From the NCBI RefSeq assembly GCF_947499845.1, contig NZ_CANMPM010000003.1, forward strand, positions 1-64,000: a stretch of DNA of 64,000 nt, written 5' to 3'. How positions within the stretch are numbered: position 1 is the first letter of the stretch; each line of letters begins with the position of its first letter. This document shows, piece by piece, positions 18,256-27,737 of the stretch. This DNA comes from an uncultured Pseudokineococcus sp. GTDB lineage: Bacteria; Actinomycetota; Actinomycetes; Actinomycetales; Quadrisphaeraceae. Position numbers and translations under genes: made by a program. The notes beneath the pieces are model-generated. The model did no database searches, was not told the origin of the DNA, and saw only the letters and a program-made list of their open reading frames with translations.

Positions 18256-19272
18256 ATGGCTCTGCAGTCCGCGAGCGTCGTGCGACTGCTCGTGTCCGCC
18301 TACGCCGGCCCCCTCGAGCAGGACCAGCTGCTCGCGAGCGTGGGGCTGCCGGTCGAGCCCCGCGCCGACGACCCCGTCGTGATCCCGGCGGACGACGCGT
18401 GGGGCCTCGTCGAGCGGATGGCCACCCACGGCGGCGCGGACCTGCCGGTCCGCTTCGCAGCGGTGGTCACCCCTGACCGGTACGGCGTGCTGGGGCTCGT
18501 GCTCGAGACGGCCACTTGCGTGCGGGAGGCGCTGGAGCGCTCGGCGCGCTGGTACCGCGCGGCCACCGGCTCAGCCACCTACGAGCTGCGCGAGACGACC
18601 GGCGGCGGCGAGCTCGTGCTGCGCCGCGACCACCACCGGCCGGGCCTGCGCATGGCCAACGAGTGCGGTCTGGCCGCCTTCGTCGCCATGCTGGGCCAGG
18701 TCGCGGCCTCGCCGGTGCGGCCGCGGGCGGTCTGCTTCCGCCACCAGCGTCCCGCCTCGACCGCTGACTACCGCCGCCTGTTCGGGTGCCCGGTCGGCTT
18801 CGGCGCCCCGGAGAACGTCGTCGTCCTCGACGAGACCGCTCTGCGGACGCCGACGCGGCTGGCCGACGAGGGTCTGTGCGACCACCTCCCCCTCCGTCCC
18901 GGAGAGGCGTGGCGGCGCACCCACGAGGCGACCACCCTCGAGGGGCGCGTGCGCGAGGCCGTGGTGGACGACCTCGGTGGCGGGGTGCCGCGCATGACGC
19001 TGACGGCGTCACGCCTGGGCATGAGCGAGAGGACGCTGCAGCGCCGGCTGGCCGAGCGCGGCATGGCCTACTCCGGGCTCGTCGACCAGGCCCGCCGCGA
19101 GGTGGCGGAGGTGCTGCTCGTGCACACCGACAGCCCCTTCGCCGAGATCGCCCAGCTGGCCGGCTTCTCCGAGCAGAGCGCCTTCTGCCGGGCGTTCCGA
19201 CGATGGACCGGCAGCACGCCCTCAGCCGTCCGCGCGGCGGTCACCGCGCCGGTGGGTCCGACGCCGTCGTGA
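18256..19272 (+). CDS. AraC-family transcriptional regulator (OruR/ArgR-like N-terminal domain)
   Basis: The protein is 338 residues long. Residues 10-200 form the arabinose-binding-like ligand domain typical of OruR-type regulators. The C-terminal AraC domain spans about 235-330, with ASRLGMSERTLQRRLAERG as first HTH and FAEIAQLAGFSEQSAFCRAF as second. It would activate a catabolic or virulence-like target, not identified; the nearest downstream gene in the same direction is the unknown 747-residue protein 224 bases away, a plausible target. The ATG at 18256 is chosen over one 18 bases upstream that adds only basic residues. Confidence 0.82.
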   Translation: MALQSASVVRLLVSAYAGPLEQDQLLASVGLPVEPRADDPVVIPADDAWGLVERMATHGGADLPVRFAAVVTPDRYGVLGLVLETATCVREALERSARWYRAATGSATYELRETTGGGELVLRRDHHRPGLRMANECGLAAFVAMLGQVAASPVRPRAVCFRHQRPASTADYRRLFGCPVGFGAPENVVVLDETALRTPTRLADEGLCDHLPLRPGEAWRRTHEATTLEGRVREAVVDDLGGGVPRMTLTASRLGMSERTLQRRLAERGMAYSGLVDQARREVAEVLLVHTDSPFAEIAQLAGFSEQSAFCRAFRRWTGSTPSAVRAAVTAPVGPTPS

Positions 19273-19496: not shown

Positions 19497-21740
19497 ATGG
19501 CCCGGGCAGGCGGACCGATGGAGGCCGGCGGCTTCGAGGAGTACGTGCTGGACGACGGAGGAGGGGGCGGCGAGGGCTACGCGGTCAGGCTCTTCCCCGA
19601 CCTCAACAACGAGGAGCTGCAGCGGGACGGGCAACCCCCGCAGTTCTACTGGTCGCCGCAGCAGCTCCGGCTCGCGCGGTTCCCCGACACCGGCGACTTC
19701 AAGTTCTCGCACACGCACTTCCGCGGGGTGCTCGACGAGTCCCACGTCGGCGTGGAGGAGACGACCGAGACGGTCGGCGGCCTGCTCAACCTCACCGTCA
19801 CCAGCCGCATGCCACCCGCCGTCATGGCCCAGCTGCAGGAGCAGGTGACCGAGCGGCTCCGCGGCGACAGCCGGCCCTTCTGGCGGGTCCTCGGCAACCG
19901 GCAGCCGGACATCACGATGGTGCCGGTGCGCAGCAACACCGCGTCGATGAGCAGCCTGGCCCCGGACAGCCCCGGCCTCCAGGACGCCACCCCGGTCGAC
20001 GACCCGGGCTCGGGCCTCGAGCGGAGCCTGCGCACGAAGCGCGGGATCGTCGCCGACCGAGACCTGCGCGGCACGTCGAACCTCGACCTGTGGGCGGTGC
20101 AGCTCGACGGCATCGGGCCCGGCTCCATCACCGGCGGGGAGAACGCCTACGGCGGGCTGCTGGGCGGCATCCCGTCCGAGCTCGTCTGGGCGGCGATGCA
20201 CGGCAACGCCAGCCCCTTCTTCGTCAGCCAGACGCTGATGATCCCGATGGCGACACCGGTCGTCGAGATCAGCATCGTCGGGCACTGGCAGAAGTGCCTC
20301 GACCACTTCTCGGCCGAGGCCACCGGCGGCGTCGCCTTCTTCGCGGCGGACGTCGCCGTCCAGCTCGAGGAGATGCAGCGCTCCGGCGACATCGAGGTGA
20401 CGATGGTCGTCGACCAGACCGTCCCGGGCGCCGACGCCGTCGCCGAGCGGCTGGAGAAGACGAAGGACCTCGTCACGCAGAAGTTCATCGACCTCGCCAA
20501 GGAGACCATCTTCGCACCGGCGACGCCCGTGGAGGCGGCCGAGGCCCGCAAGAAGAAGGGCTGGTGGAACCTCGGCGTGGCGATGAAGGTCGTCAAGAAG
20601 AAGGAGCTGGTCGACCTCCGGTACACGGAGAGCCAGATCTGGAAGTACAACCGCCAGGACGTCATCTCCAGCACGCTGGAGGGCCTGCGTCGCGAGATCG
20701 CCGCCGACGAGCAGGCGGCGGGCAAGTACTTCCACCTCGTCTCGCTGGGCGACCTCAACCGCAAGGTGCGCCGCATCACCCGGCCCGTCGCCAACTGGCT
20801 GCCCGACCCCGAGCAGCAGTGGGCCGGCGATCCGGTCAAGGGTCTCGCCGTCGAGTTCGGCTACCCGAACACCCGCGGCGAGATCGGCTGGAAGGGCAAC
20901 CAGTTCGTGCCCGCCGGTGGTGCCGACCAGGTCTGGGAGCCCGAGTGGGTGCAGCTCACGGACGAGGAGATGAGCGACCGGCCGGACGGCTGGGAGCCCG
21001 ACCAGACCTACGTCCGCCGCAAGGTCATCCTCGGCGAGAGCAGCTCGGCGCTCGCCGACCCCTACAACCGGGTCGTCGTGGAGCGGAACACCGTCGACCT
21101 CGACCCGGAGCCGCGGCTGTCGGACGAGATCTCGGTCGACGTGCGGGCCGACAACGCCGGCGTGCTCGAGGTCGGGCCCATCCAGCTCGGCGTCGTGCTC
21201 GACGGCAGCAGCCAGGTCGTCGAGGTGTCGGTGCGCCCGCTGGGCACGACGGTCGACGGCCGCGCGCGCGAGGTCGTGACGTTCTCCTTCAACGGCACCG
21301 ACCAGGACGTGCCGCGCCGGCTGAAGATCTACACCGGCGACCCCGACTACGTGCCCGCGTACGAGTACCAGGTGAGGGTCGTCGTGAAGGGCACGCTCTT
21401 CACCGACGGGATGGAATGGGGGCACGACGAGGACACCTGGTTGTCGGGCCTCGGCAACGGCCCCCTGACCGTCTCCGTGCCCAGGCCGGGCACCGAGGGC
21501 ACCGGTCAGCCCCGGGCGCTCCGCCGCGAGCAGGTCCTCTCGCTGCCCAGCGGGAGCGAGGACGCCCGAGGTGAGCGAGGCCAGCCCCGCGAGCGCCAGG
21601 CGTCCGGCGAGCGGCCGACCTCGAACGGGTCGACCCCCAACGGGTCGGGCAGGTCCGCTGAGCGGCGCGTGACCGTCGACGGGTACGACCTGTCCGCCTC
21701 CCCTCCGGCGCCACCCGAGTTCACCGGACATGCGCGGTGA
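19497..21740 (+). CDS. Large unrecognised protein, first gene of the subtilase locus
   Basis: The 747-residue protein is not recognised. No signal peptide or membrane helix is seen. Recognisable blocks are an N-terminal beta-rich part (YAVRLFPDLNNEELQR, FYWSPQQLRLARFPDTGDF), a central region with VVEISIVGHWQKCLDHFSAE followed by a helical Lys-rich stretch (EARKKKGWWNLGVAMKVVKK), and a C-terminal beta-sandwich-like part. The last 80 residues are Ser/Gly/Arg-rich and probably disordered. The ATG at 19497 follows GAGGAGGACG; an ATG at 19467 is possible. It overlaps the next gene by 11 bases and appears co-transcribed with the subtilase. Confidence 0.65.
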   Translation: MARAGGPMEAGGFEEYVLDDGGGGGEGYAVRLFPDLNNEELQRDGQPPQFYWSPQQLRLARFPDTGDFKFSHTHFRGVLDESHVGVEETTETVGGLLNLTVTSRMPPAVMAQLQEQVTERLRGDSRPFWRVLGNRQPDITMVPVRSNTASMSSLAPDSPGLQDATPVDDPGSGLERSLRTKRGIVADRDLRGTSNLDLWAVQLDGIGPGSITGGENAYGGLLGGIPSELVWAAMHGNASPFFVSQTLMIPMATPVVEISIVGHWQKCLDHFSAEATGGVAFFAADVAVQLEEMQRSGDIEVTMVVDQTVPGADAVAERLEKTKDLVTQKFIDLAKETIFAPATPVEAAEARKKKGWWNLGVAMKVVKKKELVDLRYTESQIWKYNRQDVISSTLEGLRREIAADEQAAGKYFHLVSLGDLNRKVRRITRPVANWLPDPEQQWAGDPVKGLAVEFGYPNTRGEIGWKGNQFVPAGGADQVWEPEWVQLTDEEMSDRPDGWEPDQTYVRRKVILGESSSALADPYNRVVVERNTVDLDPEPRLSDEISVDVRADNAGVLEVGPIQLGVVLDGSSQVVEVSVRPLGTTVDGRAREVVTFSFNGTDQDVPRRLKIYTGDPDYVPAYEYQVRVVVKGTLFTDGMEWGHDEDTWLSGLGNGPLTVSVPRPGTEGTGQPRALRREQVLSLPSGSEDARGERGQPRERQASGERPTSNGSTPNGSGRSAERRVTVDGYDLSASPPAPPEFTGHAR

Positions 21741-24700
21741 CGGAGGGCGGGGCGACGTCGCCCAGCAGGTCCGATCGCTGGAGCTGAGCGACGGGACCCT
21801 GGCCTTTGTGCACGGGAGCGGCGCGGACGCCCGGCCCGCTGTGGCGGTCAGCCCCGCTGTCGGTGAGGTGCTCGGCCCGGTCCTCGCCCTCGTGCTGCGC
21901 CGCCACCCCCGCTCCGACGAGCACGCCGTCGGGCACCTGGTCTGCGCCGCCAACCTGCGCCTCGACCTGTCGGTGGTGGCGAGCCCGGCGCAGCGCGAGG
22001 AGGTCGCCGGGCTGGTCGGGAGCCCGGTCGAGGCGCTGCGACCCCGGTCCGGCCTGGTCGAGCTCGTCGAGGCGGGTGGTGCGCACCTGCAGGTGCCGGT
22101 CACGGCTGCCGGGACGGCGAACCTCACCGGCACGCTCGGCGAGCACCCCGCCCGGCTCCTCGTGGCCGCGCTCGCCGGTGACCCGGCGCTCGTGGTGCGC
22201 ACGTGCCTCGAGGTCGTCGAGCAGCCGACGAGCACCCGGCTGCACCTGGCCGGTCGGTGGCGGGACCTGCACGACGGCCTGGGGGTGACGGGGGAGGAGG
22301 TGACGCGGCTGGGCTTCGTCCAGGTGGCCCGCCGGCTGGTGGCCGACGGGCTGGTGACGGCGACCGCCGACCCGCCCGCCCCCCCGGCGCAGCTGGCGGT
22401 CGCCGCTGCCGAGCTGCTCTGGCAGTGGCGGACCTTCCTCGGCGACGAGACCGCCGACGGGCTCGTGCTCGGCGCGCGGCCCGCCGCCGCCGACGCCCTG
22501 TCCTTCGGCACCACCACCGTGGTCGGGGTCCCGGGGCAGCTCCGGTGCCAGCAGCCGTTCGCCGACGTGCTCGCCCGGGGGCTCGAGCGGTCCGGACACC
22601 GCTCCCTCGACGACCTCGTCGACCTGGTGGTCGCCGGCGCGACGGGCCCCGAACCGGTGGCGCCCCGGCGGGTCGCGGCCCGCCGTCGACGGTCCGCGCC
22701 GCGGCCCCTCGCGCTGGCGTCGAGCACGGTCTCGACGCTGCTCACCCCCACCGCCGTGCTCGCCGCCAGCCCGGTGCACCGGCCCGGCGTCCTCTCCGGC
22801 GCGCTCTCCAACGCGATGGCCGCCGCCGTCCGGCCCGTGCGGCCGGCACCGGGACCGCTCGTGCAGGACCCCCGGGCCGCGTCGTGGTCCGACCACGCCG
22901 ACCCGGACGTGCGCTGGCACGCGCCGAGGCTCGAGTTGCGGCTCGACGAGGCCACCGGCCCGCTGCTCGAGCTGCACGACGAGGGCCTCACGTCGGAGGG
23001 CACCGCCGCGCTGCGGGCGGTCGTCGAGGTGCCGTTCGCCCTGGTGCCGTCGAGCACGGGCAGGACCGTCGACGTCCACGACCTGACCGTCGAGCTGGCG
23101 GTGCCCTTCCGGGACGCCGCCCGGGGCAACGCCCCGGCGACGCACCGGCTGCGGGGCGTCGTCTCCGGCGGGGAGGGGGCGCGCGTCGCCCGCTTCGAGG
23201 CCCTCAACCAGTGGAGCCGGCTGGCGTACCGGGCGCTGTCGGACCCGGCCGCCGAGCCCGCCGAGCTCGTCGTCGGCTACGCCGTCGCGGGCTACCGGCG
23301 GGTCAGCACGACCGACCCCCCGAAGCTCGTCTTCGGCGCGCAGCTCGCGAAGGCCGGACTGGCCTCGCACGCGCTGGTCCTCGACCCGGTGACGCGCTCG
23401 GTGCCGCTCGGCGTGGGGCGGCTGACGCTCGACGCGCGCCGCGCGGGCGCTCTCCGCCCGGGCCTGCTCGCCGGGCGGTTCCAACGGCCCGGGACGACGA
23501 GGTCGCGGCTCACCGCAGGCCGCTTCCCGCGCTCGGAGAGCGCAGCGGTGGCGGTCGACTGCGCCGAGCGGCCGGACGCCTACGTCGAGCGCCGGGGGGA
23601 CGCGCTCGCGGTGATCGGCCGGCCGGCCGGCGCTCGAGCTGGGGGAGGTGGCGTACGTCCAGTTCCGGGAGGTGACCGGGCTGCGCACCCCGCTTGCCCG
23701 GGTGCACCAGTCGCAGACCGACGGCGGGCAGTACCTGGTCGTGCCGACCGCGTACCAGGTGGGGCGGCGGGCCGACGACGGGACGGAGGCGGCCCACCGG
23801 CCCCTGGTCGTGCTCCACGCCGCGGTCGGCACCGGCCCCGACGAGGTCGAGGTGCTCTTCGAGGCGGGCCTGCAGCCCGCGCTGCGCCCGCTCGACGTCG
23901 CCGACCTGACCCGCGAGGTCCGCCGCCGCGACGAGCGGGCGTCCCTCGTCTGGCCGACCGAGGTGTCGGGGGTCAGCGCCACCTTCTCGTGGGCCGGCGT
24001 GGCGGCGCTCGGGGCGCGGCTCGAGACCACGGCGCTGCCCGGGGGCACGCTCCGGCTCGGGGCCGGTGTCGACGTGGCGCAGTGGATGGTGCTGCGGGGG
24101 GTGCTGGCCCACGGCGGGCTGGCCGGCGCGGCCACCTTCACCTTCCCCGACGGCTCGTCGGTGTCGTCCTCCCTGGCCGTCGACCTGCGCCGCGTCGTCG
24201 GGCCGTGGGCCACCGGGCCGCTGCGCGTCGAGCGCGACGGCGCCGCCGTCGTGGTCAGCAACCCGACGGAGGCGCCGGTCGTCCTCCACCAGCTCGTCGC
24301 GCACGGCCCCGACGGCGTCGTCGGCGCGACGGCCGTCGAGCGCACGGTCGAGGCCGGCGCGTCGACGACCGTCGAGTGGCAGCCGCCGGCGGGCGCCGTC
24401 GTCCTGACCGACCACGAGACGGTCTCGACCGGACCCGCGACCGTGGAGGAGATCCGCAGCTTCGTCGAGGAGGTCGACGTCACCGTCGTCTTCCTGCACG
24501 AGCAGCCGGGCGACCAGGAGGTGGCCGTCGACGCCCGGGTCGCCGGCCTCGACGAGGTCCAGCGGGTGGTGCTGGGCCCCGACGCGCCGGCGGCCGAGGT
24601 GACCTTCCCGCTGCCGCTCACCGCGGCGCTCGCGTCCCCCGCCGTCGAGTACCGGGTGGCCGGGGCGCCCTCCGCGGCCTGGCGGCGGCACCTGCTGAGC

Positions 24701-24742
24701 GACAGCGCCTTCGTGGTCATCACGGACGACGCGCAGACCTGA
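21730..24742 (+). pseudogene. Large unrecognised protein with a frame break, second gene of the subtilase locus
   Basis: Coding character runs in one frame from the ATG at 21730 to about 23635 (to DALAVIGRPAG), then switches by one base to the frame that continues LELGEVAYVQFREVTGL and ends at 24742. Together the two parts make about 1000 residues. The break falls in the repeat GGCCGGCCGGC, so it is a simple indel, a sequencing error or, less likely, programmed slippage. Content is beta-rich (FTFPDGSSVSSSLAVDLRR; VEEVDVTVVFLHEQPGD), with no signal peptide or membrane span. The family is not recognised. The stop lies 28 bases before the subtilase start. Confidence 0.6.
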
Positions 24743-24770
24743 GAGCAAGGACACCACCGAGGAGGAACCG

Positions 24771-27737
24771 ATGACCACCGCGAGCGACGCCGCCCTGTCC
24801 TACCGGTCCGGCGGACGGGACGTCCCGATCAGTCCGGACCCGGAGCTGATCGCCGTGCGCTTCGTGCCGAGCGGGCGCGACGCCGGCTCGGCCCTGGAGC
24901 CCCGCGCCGCCGAGGTGGTGCGGCGCGCCAGCGGCGTCGCCTTCCTCGCCCAGCACGGCGTGCGGGTGCTGCGGGTGCCGGAGGGCGCGTCGGGCGGCGC
25001 GCTGGCCCTGGACCGCGACTCGGCCGTCGACTTCTCGGCGCCGCTCGTGCGCATCGACGGCGACGAGCGCCACGTCGCCGTCGTGCTCCCCCAGGTCGTC
25101 GCCGTCTTTCCGCCGGACCAGCCGCGGGCCGAGGTCGAGCGCCTGCTCGACGGCTACGGCGCCACGGTCGTCGAGGCCAAGCCCTTCCTCGGCAACGCCT
25201 ACGTCGTGCGCTCGGCCGAGGGGTCCGGGGAGCGGGGCCCGGTGGCGCTGGCCAACCGCCTCGTCGACGACGGCCACGCGCTCATGGCCTCCCCCGACCT
25301 GGTGCGGCGCATCGAGACGCGCGTCCTCGTCGCGGAGCCCGAGGCCGGGAGCGCGCGCGAGGACCGCGCGGCCTTCGACGACGAGCAGTGGCACCTGGAC
25401 ACCGCCCGGGTCCGGGGCGCGTGGGCCCGCACCCGCGGTGAGGGCGTCACGGTGGCCGTCCTCGACGACGGGGTCGCGGTCGACCACCCCGAGTTCGCCG
25501 GCAAGGTCCGGGCCCAGCGCGACTTCGCCGGCGGCGCCGCCGGCGCCCAGCCCGCCGGGCCGGACGACAACCACGGCACGGCCTGCGCCGGCGTCGCGGT
25601 CGCCGCCGGGGTGAAGGCCTCGGGGGCGGCCCCCGAGGCCGGGCTCGTGGCCGCCCGCACGCCCCTGTGGCTCGGCACGGCCGACGAGGTGGAGATGTTC
25701 CGGTGGGCCGTCGACGAGGGCGCCCAGGTCATCTCATGCTCGTGGGGCCCCGCCCAGCCCTTCGCGCTGCCGGACGTCACCGAGGAGGTGCTGCGCTGGT
25801 GCGCGCAGGACGCCCGCCGCGGCAAGGGCGTCGTCGTGCTCTTCGCCGCCGGCAACGAGTCCGAGGACATGACCACCGACGGCTACGCCGCGAGCCCGCA
25901 CGTGCTCGCGGTGGCCGCGAGCACCGACGCCGACGAGCCGGCGTGGTACTCCGACTTCGGCCCCGCGGTCGACATCGCCGCGCCGTCCAACGGCGGCACC
26001 CGCGCGATCTTCACCACCGACCGCCCCGGTGGCGACGGCTACAACGACGGGTCCGAGCCCCACGGCGACGACGGCTACACCGCCACCTTCGGCGGCACCT
26101 CGTCGGCCACGCCCCTCGTGGCCGGCGTCGCCGCGCTCGTGCTGTCGGCGAACCCCGCGCTCACGGCCGCCGAGGTGCGCGACGTCCTGCTCTCGACCGC
26201 CGCGAAGGTCGGGGGTGCGGACGAGTACGACGCCGACGGGCACAGCACCCGCTTCGGCCACGGCCGGGTCGACGCCGCCGCCGCCGTCGACGAGGCCGTG
26301 CGCCGTCAGGCGGCGGGTCCGGGTACCGCGCTCGGCCCGGTGCGGGTGACGGGCCCGGCGGTGGCTCCCCGCCTCGGCCCGCCGCCGACGTTCCAGGTCG
26401 ACACCGGGGGGCGCTCGCTCTTCGCCGTCGAGGTGGCCACCGAGGCCGAGCTGCTCGACGCCGCGCACAGCCACCGCCGCACCGACTCCACCTTCTTCTC
26501 CTCCTGGGAGGACGGGCCGGAGACCTCGAGCCCCTACACGCTGCCCGGGGCGGTCTGGGAGCGGCTGCGGCACGCCGAGGTCCTCGCCTACCGGGCCCTC
26601 GCGGCGGACGACGCCCACGGCGCCGACCTGGCCTACAGCACACCTGACGCGGCGGCCGCCTCGGCGCCCAGCACGAGGATCACCGAGGAGCCCTCGTCCA
26701 CCACCACGCTGCGCTTCCCGAGCGGTGCGCGCTTCGCGCAGGTCGACGACCCCCAGGACGGCGCGGACTACGGCGACCCCGTCGCGAACGGAATCGTCGC
26801 CCTGCTGGACACGTCGGGGCGCCTCGACGAGAAGCTGGCCGCCAGCTTCAGCCTGCGGGAGCTGGCCGCCCAGTCGGGCCCGTACCGCTACGCGCGGGTG
26901 TCGGTCGAGCTGGTGGAGGGGCTGCAGGCCATGCGGTCCGCGGCCGGCGCGCCGCTGACGGTGCGCTCGGCCTACCGCCCACCGGCGCTCAACACGTCCG
27001 TGGGCGGTGCTCGCCGCAGCCAGCACCTCGTCGGTCGGGCGGCGGACATCCGCGTCAAGGGCCTGACGCCGCTCGAGGTCGCCGAGCTCGCGCTGGAGCA
27101 CCTCGGCCTCGACATCGGCCTCGGCCTGGGCAGCACCACCACCCACGTCGACCTGCGGGGCACGCTCGCGACGTGGGTGTACACCGGCGCCGAGCTCTCG
27201 GAGGAGGGCTTCGACGACTGGGCGCGACAGCAGGCCCGACGACGCGGCCGCCGACGGGTCGAGCGGGAGGAGGCCGCCGAGCGCGACTGGCCCGCGGTGC
27301 TCGGACCCGAGGAGTGGTCCGTCGGCGAGCCCGCGCCCGCCTTCCGCGTGCGGTCGGGCCGGCACCCGTGGGTGGCCCTCGAGCTGGCCACCGACCCGAG
27401 GCTGTTCTGGCCCGCCGCGACGGGGCGGACGCGCACGCCGGGCACCTTCGCCGCCACGTGGGAGCAGGGCATGACCTCCACGGGCAGGGCCCTGGAGACC
27501 ACCGTCACGGTGCCTGCGGAGCTGTGGCGCCGCCTCGAGCAGCCGACCCGGGTGCACTACCGCTGCGTCACCGCCGCTCGGAGGGACGACTGGGACGAGG
27601 CCGAGAGCTCGCTCGCGCTCGAGGACGCCGACCGGGCGCCGTCGGTCCGGGTGAGCCGCAGCCGGCGCAGCGACGCGTGGGTCGACGACGCGACGCACCG
27701 GCGGACGGTCGAGCGCCGGTGGACGCAGCGCGGGTAG
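24771..27737 (+). CDS. S8 subtilase fused to an M15-type peptidase domain with a duplicated unknown domain
   Basis: The protein is 988 residues long. Residues 1-200 are a propeptide-like region. The S8 domain spans about 205-510, with catalytic Asp232 (VAVLDDGVAVDH), His268 (NHGTACAG), oxyanion Asn362 (FAAGNES) and Ser444 (FGGTSSATP). Residues about 660-815 match peptidase M15: RSAYRPP, then SQHLVGRAADIR with likely zinc ligands His752 and Asp759, and THVDLRG with His792. On both sides (about 540-625 and 860-950) is the same unknown domain, starting FQVDTGGRSLFAVEVAT and FRVRSGRHPWVALELAT. No signal peptide is present, which is unusual for either peptidase class. The ATG follows GAGGAGG. Confidence 0.85.
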   Translation: MTTASDAALSYRSGGRDVPISPDPELIAVRFVPSGRDAGSALEPRAAEVVRRASGVAFLAQHGVRVLRVPEGASGGALALDRDSAVDFSAPLVRIDGDERHVAVVLPQVVAVFPPDQPRAEVERLLDGYGATVVEAKPFLGNAYVVRSAEGSGERGPVALANRLVDDGHALMASPDLVRRIETRVLVAEPEAGSAREDRAAFDDEQWHLDTARVRGAWARTRGEGVTVAVLDDGVAVDHPEFAGKVRAQRDFAGGAAGAQPAGPDDNHGTACAGVAVAAGVKASGAAPEAGLVAARTPLWLGTADEVEMFRWAVDEGAQVISCSWGPAQPFALPDVTEEVLRWCAQDARRGKGVVVLFAAGNESEDMTTDGYAASPHVLAVAASTDADEPAWYSDFGPAVDIAAPSNGGTRAIFTTDRPGGDGYNDGSEPHGDDGYTATFGGTSSATPLVAGVAALVLSANPALTAAEVRDVLLSTAAKVGGADEYDADGHSTRFGHGRVDAAAAVDEAVRRQAAGPGTALGPVRVTGPAVAPRLGPPPTFQVDTGGRSLFAVEVATEAELLDAAHSHRRTDSTFFSSWEDGPETSSPYTLPGAVWERLRHAEVLAYRALAADDAHGADLAYSTPDAAAASAPSTRITEEPSSTTTLRFPSGARFAQVDDPQDGADYGDPVANGIVALLDTSGRLDEKLAASFSLRELAAQSGPYRYARVSVELVEGLQAMRSAAGAPLTVRSAYRPPALNTSVGGARRSQHLVGRAADIRVKGLTPLEVAELALEHLGLDIGLGLGSTTTHVDLRGTLATWVYTGAELSEEGFDDWARQQARRRGRRRVEREEAAERDWPAVLGPEEWSVGEPAPAFRVRSGRHPWVALELATDPRLFWPAATGRTRTPGTFAATWEQGMTSTGRALETTVTVPAELWRRLEQPTRVHYRCVTAARRDDWDEAESSLALEDADRAPSVRVSRSRRSDAWVDDATHRRTVERRWTQRG

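What the first reader, a model, noticed from the sequence alone, without database searches (positions are those of the whole stretch)
19497..27737. Candidate new system: two giant unknown proteins with a dual-protease subtilase
Three consecutive large genes (747, about 1000 and 988 residues) without signal peptides occupy 8.2 kb. The third combines an intact S8 catalytic triad with an M15 peptidase domain. The first two are not recognised, and are beta-rich like structural or binding proteins. A protease that lacks export signals next to big partner proteins suggests an intracellular conflict or assembly system, or export by a non-Sec route. An AraC regulator lies just upstream.
Basis: partly seen in the sequence, partly recalled or inferred. 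Interest (0 to 1): 0.8.

Follow-up and report, generated by a model that had tools for sequence, protein, structure and literature searches.

The report
Two-subunit core with interchangeable hydrolase partners
Two large bacterial proteins of unknown family are inherited together in distant bacteria and sit beside an interchangeable, usually cell-wall-directed enzyme (subtilisin, caspase, papain or a lysin-like protein), which looks like an undescribed modular weapon or self-destruct system whose target is still unknown.

Summary
The genes are real: gene 1 (19497-21740), gene 2 (21730-24742, frame broken near 23.6 kb), gene 3 (24771-27737, S8 + M15_3). Genes 1 and 2 match nothing in Pfam, NCBIfam, PHROGs, PADLOC or, by sequence, the PDB. 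The third gene is not fixed: subtilisin-M15 here, caspase + PG_binding_1 (Deinococcus; G485), papain + PG_binding_1 (G471), or hemopexin + a phage-like, perhaps lysin, domain (one genus). The window subtilisin and the Deinococcus caspase share an otherwise unseen beta-sandwich. Gene 1 belongs to a wider superfamily forming multi-gene arrays in Actinomycetota and Alphaproteobacteria, near caspase, CHAP, PLD, tyrosinase, CHAT-TPR or EAD1/STAND-like genes; gene 2 resembles the first array gene. Best reading: a constant carrier or control complex with interchangeable, mostly envelope-directed hydrolases, probably for biological conflict. The linkage and exchange are well supported; whether it acts on the producer or on other cells is unresolved, and no function was tested.

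The parts
18256..19272 (+). AraC-type transcriptional regulator, probable local regulator of the operon
   Evidence: NCBIfam AraC-like hits; 224 bp upstream, same strand. Other loci have a different adjacent regulator (BTAD in L007, LuxR-type in L018), so its role is inferred from position only.
19497..21740 (+). Gene 1: 747 aa core subunit, no known family; conserved central module about aa 196-312
   Evidence: Homologue at 38% in Deinococcus, full length in G485, G520, G703, G1005, G471; 40-member superfamily; profile match to array proteins at 97-98.7%.
21730..23622 (+). Gene 2, N-terminal two thirds (frame of 21730); overlaps the end of gene 1 by 11 bp
   Evidence: GC3 0.89-1.0 in this frame; homology to gene 2 of L007 and L018.
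23615..23640 (+). Approximate site where the reading frame of gene 2 changes, in or near a GGCC repeat
   Evidence: Frame switch of GC3 and of tblastn matches; homologues are single ORFs.
23627..24742 (+). Gene 2, C-terminal third (frame of 23627)
   Evidence: tblastn 30% to Deinococcus gene 2, E 4e-35; A5 profile E 1.6e-134 (this stretch is itself in A5).
24771..27737 (+). Gene 3: 988 aa, N-terminal about 215 aa, S8 subtilase (aa 223-498), beta-sandwich, M15_3 (aa 693-794), second beta-sandwich
   Evidence: Pfam; own Shine-Dalgarno, 28 bp after gene 2.
26319..26705 (+). Accessory beta-sandwich domain, copy 1 (aa 517-645), shared with the Deinococcus caspase protein
   Evidence: blastp 8e-18 to the caspase protein; found only in this system in PLSDB; AF2 pLDDT 70, FN3/MG-like, Z up to 6.3 and not distinctive.
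27282..27674 (+). Accessory beta-sandwich domain, copy 2 (aa 838-968)
   Evidence: 34% to copy 1; blastp 4e-13 to the caspase protein.

Best explanation
Genes 1 and 2 encode the constant, beta-rich core of a modular effector system. They probably form a complex that holds, positions or triggers the product of an adjacent, exchangeable hydrolase gene. In this genome the hydrolase is a subtilisin joined to a peptidoglycan peptidase; elsewhere it is a caspase or papain joined to a wall-binding domain, or a hemopexin protein with a phage-like, possibly lysin, domain. When released or activated the effector would cut proteins and the cell wall and kill the target cell. Shown here: co-inheritance and adjacency of genes 1 and 2, exchange of the effector, a shared accessory domain between two unrelated proteases, and apparent absence of Sec signals. 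Inferred: complex formation, activation, killing, and the target. I cannot separate action on the producer (suicide, abortive defence) from delivery or lysis-release onto other cells.
For: Gene 1 and gene 2 profiles hit strongly in the same 5 of 346 genomes, adjacent each time, and are adjacent in Deinococcus and G1005. The gene 2 profile was built partly from those loci, but nothing else in the sample scored comparably. Third-gene exchange: S8+M15_3, caspase+PG_binding_1 twice, papain+PG_binding_1, hemopexin plus a domain 40% identical to a phage-encoded sequence. Shared beta-sandwich. In the wider superfamily, same-strand neighbours include caspase, CHAP+PG_binding_1, and PLD, tyrosinase and trypsin with EAD1 and ATP-binding genes. 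A chagasin-type papain inhibitor lies beside the papains in G471. Patchy spread over two phyla for the gene 1-gene 2 pair and three for the superfamily.
Against: No function was tested. No secretion machinery was recognised in the compact loci, so delivery to other cells has no visible route. Caspase and S8 partners have no recognised immunity gene. Only five gene 1-gene 2 lineages were found. The AlphaFold model of gene 1 was worthless (pLDDT 32.5), so a known fold may hide in it. Some enzymes near the arrays may be chance neighbours. Gene 2 appears frameshifted here, so this copy may not be functional.
Confidence: 0.55

Rival explanations
1. Intracellular immune or cell-death system: genes 1 and 2 sense phage infection or damage and unleash the hydrolase inside the producer, whose wall-directed domain helps lyse the cell.
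For: No Sec signals apparent; caspases and trypsins are typical cell-death effectors; EAD1, ATP-binding and trypsin genes directly upstream of the Paracoccus array; CHAT-TPR and S8 genes beside arrays in one actinomycete family; published EAD1 systems include lysozyme- and papain-like wall enzymes (PMC7159879).
Against: No PADLOC match for the core; no NTPase sensor recognised in the compact loci; wall-binding domains would act outside the membrane.
Confidence: 0.3
2. Extracellular weapon or digestion complex, exported by an unknown route or released by lysis, that attacks competitors, prey or host surfaces.
For: Wall-binding or wall-cutting domains in effectors without signal peptides, as in endolysins; hemopexin, tyrosinase, Tle1 and PLD neighbours; chagasin inhibitor as possible self-protection.
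Against: No tail, needle or pore genes recognised; core not found in phages or viral contigs.
Confidence: 0.3
3. A developmental or housekeeping protease operon of the producer (wall remodelling, maturation of the two large proteins).
For: Zymogen-like N-terminal regions in the S8 and papain proteins (judged by eye); local regulators next to several loci.
Against: Presence in about 1% of sampled genomes, no hit in 58 related genomes and cross-phylum spread do not fit housekeeping.
Confidence: 0.12
4. Chance neighbourhood: two unknown proteins with an unrelated subtilisin.
For: S8 genes are common (5 in this genome).
Against: A protease or wall-type protein next to genes 1-2 in five of five lineages, and the shared beta-sandwich between subtilisin and caspase.
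Confidence: 0.04

Closest known systems
EAD1 / NTP-dependent conflict systems with caspase, trypsin and papain effectors (eLife 2020, PMC7159879)
   Same: Interchangeable proteases and wall enzymes; EAD1, ATP-binding and trypsin genes adjoin a superfamily array in Paracoccus.
   Different: A text search of that paper gave no sign of the gene 1 and gene 2 families; no EAD or NTPase was recognised in the compact loci.
Polymorphic toxin systems (PMC3482391)
   Same: Constant part with exchangeable catalytic domains, proteases among them, and inhibitor-like neighbours.
   Different: The effector is a separate gene, not a C-terminal cassette; no known trafficking domain or secretion route.
Prokaryotic metacaspases with peptidoglycan-binding domains (PMC3501461)
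   Same: 11 metacaspases with a putative peptidoglycan-binding domain were counted in 2012.
   Different: That survey found none in Deinococcus-Thermus, and the passages read name no partner like genes 1 and 2.
Type VII-associated mycosin (TIGR03921)
   Same: The S8 catalytic domain matches.
   Different: 147.8 bits against a 278.75 cut-off; no signal peptide apparent; different architecture.

Membership tests
Peptidase S8 (PF00082), gene 3 | Score over the curated cut-off and intact Asp/His/Ser | tested here: met
   144.8 bits against 21.8; D232, H268, S444.
Peptidase M15_3 (PF08291), gene 3 | Score over the curated cut-off and zinc ligands H-x6-D...H | tested here: met
   66.7 bits against 23.2; H752, D759, H792.
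Type VII mycosin (TIGR03921) | Curated cut-off 278.75 bits | tested here: not met
   147.8 bits.
Known anti-phage defence proteins (PADLOC), core genes | Match to a PADLOC model | tested here: not met
   No match for genes 1 and 2; only stray weak single-member hits for the superfamily.
EAD/STAND/caspase conflict systems | EAD or NTPase component in the locus | tested here: inconclusive
   None recognised in the window locus, but neighbours were not all scanned; EAD1 and ATP-binding genes adjoin the related Paracoccus array.
EAD/STAND/caspase conflict systems | Infection- or damage-triggered activation of effectors | not testable with these tools
   Needs experiments.
Extracellular contractile injection / PVC systems | Sheath, tube and baseplate genes in the locus | tested here: inconclusive
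   No such gene was recognised among the proteins scanned with Pfam and PHROGs, but not every neighbour was scanned.
Polymorphic toxins | C-terminal toxin cassette behind a constant trafficking domain, with cognate immunity gene | tested here: not met
   The exchangeable part is a separate gene; only one inhibitor-like neighbour seen.

The most novel reading that the evidence does not exclude
A previously undescribed, cross-phylum biological-conflict system built on a new superfamily of large beta-rich proteins (a compact two-subunit form and multi-gene arrays) that deploys exchangeable hydrolases, mostly aimed at the cell envelope, without a known secretion route.
Probability: 0.5. Interest if true: 0.82.

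Novelty: categorically new. Interest (0 to 1): 0.7.

Why it matters
Two protein families with no assigned relatives recur with unrelated proteases that carry wall-directed domains. If this is a conflict system it adds a new kind of core to bacterial immunity or warfare, ties some bacterial caspases and subtilisins to one mechanism, and gives an immediately testable gene set. The caveat is that a fold-level relationship to a known family was not excluded, because no usable model of genes 1 and 2 could be made.

Tried and rejected
Two genome-contig scans and two viral scans found no relative. Order and phylum searches with the single gene 1 sequence found none; only the two-sequence profile did. 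The beta-sandwich model gave only common FN3/MG-like matches, and no link between this domain and the large proteins was found. Direct homology of gene 1 and gene 2 was tested and not supported. PDB sequence searches of gene 1 and of the superfamily gave no credible hit. A suspected OmpA-like stretch in array proteins was not confirmed. The lysozyme nature of the hemopexin protein's C-terminus was not confirmed by Pfam or PDB sequences; there is only a phage match. The M15-like character of a small neighbour in G520 was not confirmed. Literature searches found no description of the core, but the library lacks many journals.

Full report
Observation. The window is high-GC actinobacterial DNA (G000 contig C3; kin are within one order of Actinomycetota by the relatives drawn; the phylum is inferred from composition and kinship). 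Genes 1-3 lie head to tail on the plus strand. Gene 1 runs from 19497 to 21740; gene 2 starts 11 bp before its end; gene 3 starts 28 bp after the end of gene 2 with its own Shine-Dalgarno. Codon-position GC shows that gene 2 changes frame around 23.56-23.64 kb, within or near a GGCC run; tblastn with the Deinococcus homologue gives matches in two frames, while homologues are single ORFs. Gene 3 has complete S8 and M15_3 catalytic residues. An AraC-type regulator precedes the operon. A hydropathy scan shows no signal peptide or clear membrane span in these or in the homologues checked.

Genes 1 and 2 are unassigned. Neither matches NCBIfam or PADLOC, PHROGs or Pfam above noise. Profiles of gene 1 and of the wider superfamily find nothing credible among PDB sequences.

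Linkage. tblastn against 72,556 plasmid records finds one relative of gene 1, on a Deinococcus taeanensis plasmid; the same locus holds gene 2 next door, followed by a caspase-family protein. A profile made from the two gene 1 sequences then finds relatives in five further genomes of 346 sampled from the class, one of them (G649) only over the central module. A gene 2 profile over the same sample scores strongly only in the window genome, G471, G485, G520 and G703, exactly those with full-length gene 1, and the genes are adjacent in all. G1005 has the same pair. Several of these loci contributed sequences to the gene 2 profile, so their recovery is not independent, but no other genome scored comparably. 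In 396 genomes across the phylum only the window genome has full gene 1.

Exchange of the third gene. Window: S8, beta-sandwich, M15_3, beta-sandwich. Deinococcus: caspase C14, the same beta-sandwich, PG_binding_1. G485: caspase C14, PG_binding_1 and a Gly/Ser tail. G471: papain C1 + PG_binding_1 upstream of gene 1, with a second papain, an S8 protease and a chagasin I42 inhibitor downstream. G520, G703, G1005: a hemopexin protein whose C-terminal part is 40% identical to a phage-encoded sequence lies directly upstream of gene 1; in G520 an S8 gene lies further upstream, with clustered homologues in the other two. The beta-sandwich gives blastp E-values of 8e-18 and 4e-13 between the caspase and subtilisin proteins, and in PLSDB occurs only in this system. 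Gene 1 of G485 is closer to Deinococcus (48%) than to the window (37%), which suggests transfer between phyla.

Wider superfamily. Gene 1 connects by blastp (E below 1e-6, single linkage) to 39 other proteins in the fetched loci. In G796, G814 and G921 five large genes stand in a row, and at least four of these types in G999, G963 and G649. Profile-profile comparison matches gene 1 to the third, fourth and fifth array families at 97-98.7% probability, and gene 2 to the first at 94%, while most other pairings involving genes 1 and 2 give under 1% (E-values are for single comparisons). A profile built without the window finds window gene 1 in its genome at E 8e-5, with no other match there. Same-strand neighbours of arrays include a caspase 11 bp downstream in G796, CHAP + PG_binding_1 in G921, and PLD, tyrosinase and trypsin genes with EAD1 and ATP-binding genes in Paracoccus. 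S8 and CHAT-TPR genes recur beside both types in one actinomycete family. The array proteins scanned have no Pfam, PHROG or PADLOC family beyond stray weak hits.

Interpretation. A constant core with exchangeable hydrolases, patchy distribution and probable cross-phylum transfer is the pattern of conflict systems (established knowledge of such systems; PMC3482391, PMC7159879). Wall-binding or wall-cutting domains recur in the effectors. Complex formation, activation and killing are inferred. Two directions remain open: action on the producer during infection or damage, or release onto other cells. Published EAD1 systems with lysozyme- and papain-like effectors (PMC7159879) are the nearest analogue, and one array adjoins EAD1 genes, but no EAD or NTPase part was recognised in the compact loci, so membership is not claimed.

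Limits. Sampling covered 1997 genome scans (some genomes more than once) within one phylum, plus plasmids, phages and viral contigs. No usable structure of the core exists. Gene boundaries in unannotated loci come from a simple codon-usage predictor. Literature coverage is open-access only.

Noticed in passing
window 22633-22723 (-): ARAGORN reports a tRNA-Val inside the gene 2 coding sequence; probably a false positive.
   Followed up: partly
window 23590-23660: GGCC repeat at the frame change of gene 2; slippage or phase variation is conceivable but so is an assembly error.
   Followed up: partly
L019, L020, L022, L040, L044: CHAT-TPR, S8 subtilase, ECF sigma factor and a small protein recur together beside both the gene 1-gene 2 pair and the arrays in one actinomycete family.
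   Followed up: partly
L046 7541-12428: Trypsin, EAD1 protein and ATP-binding protein directly upstream of a superfamily array on a Paracoccus plasmid.
   Followed up: no
L021 12455-12808: Chagasin-family inhibitor I42 between gene 2 and a second papain gene, a possible immunity or control protein.
   Followed up: partly
L018 7232-8746: Caspase + PG_binding_1 protein with a long Gly/Ser-rich C-terminal tail.
   Followed up: no
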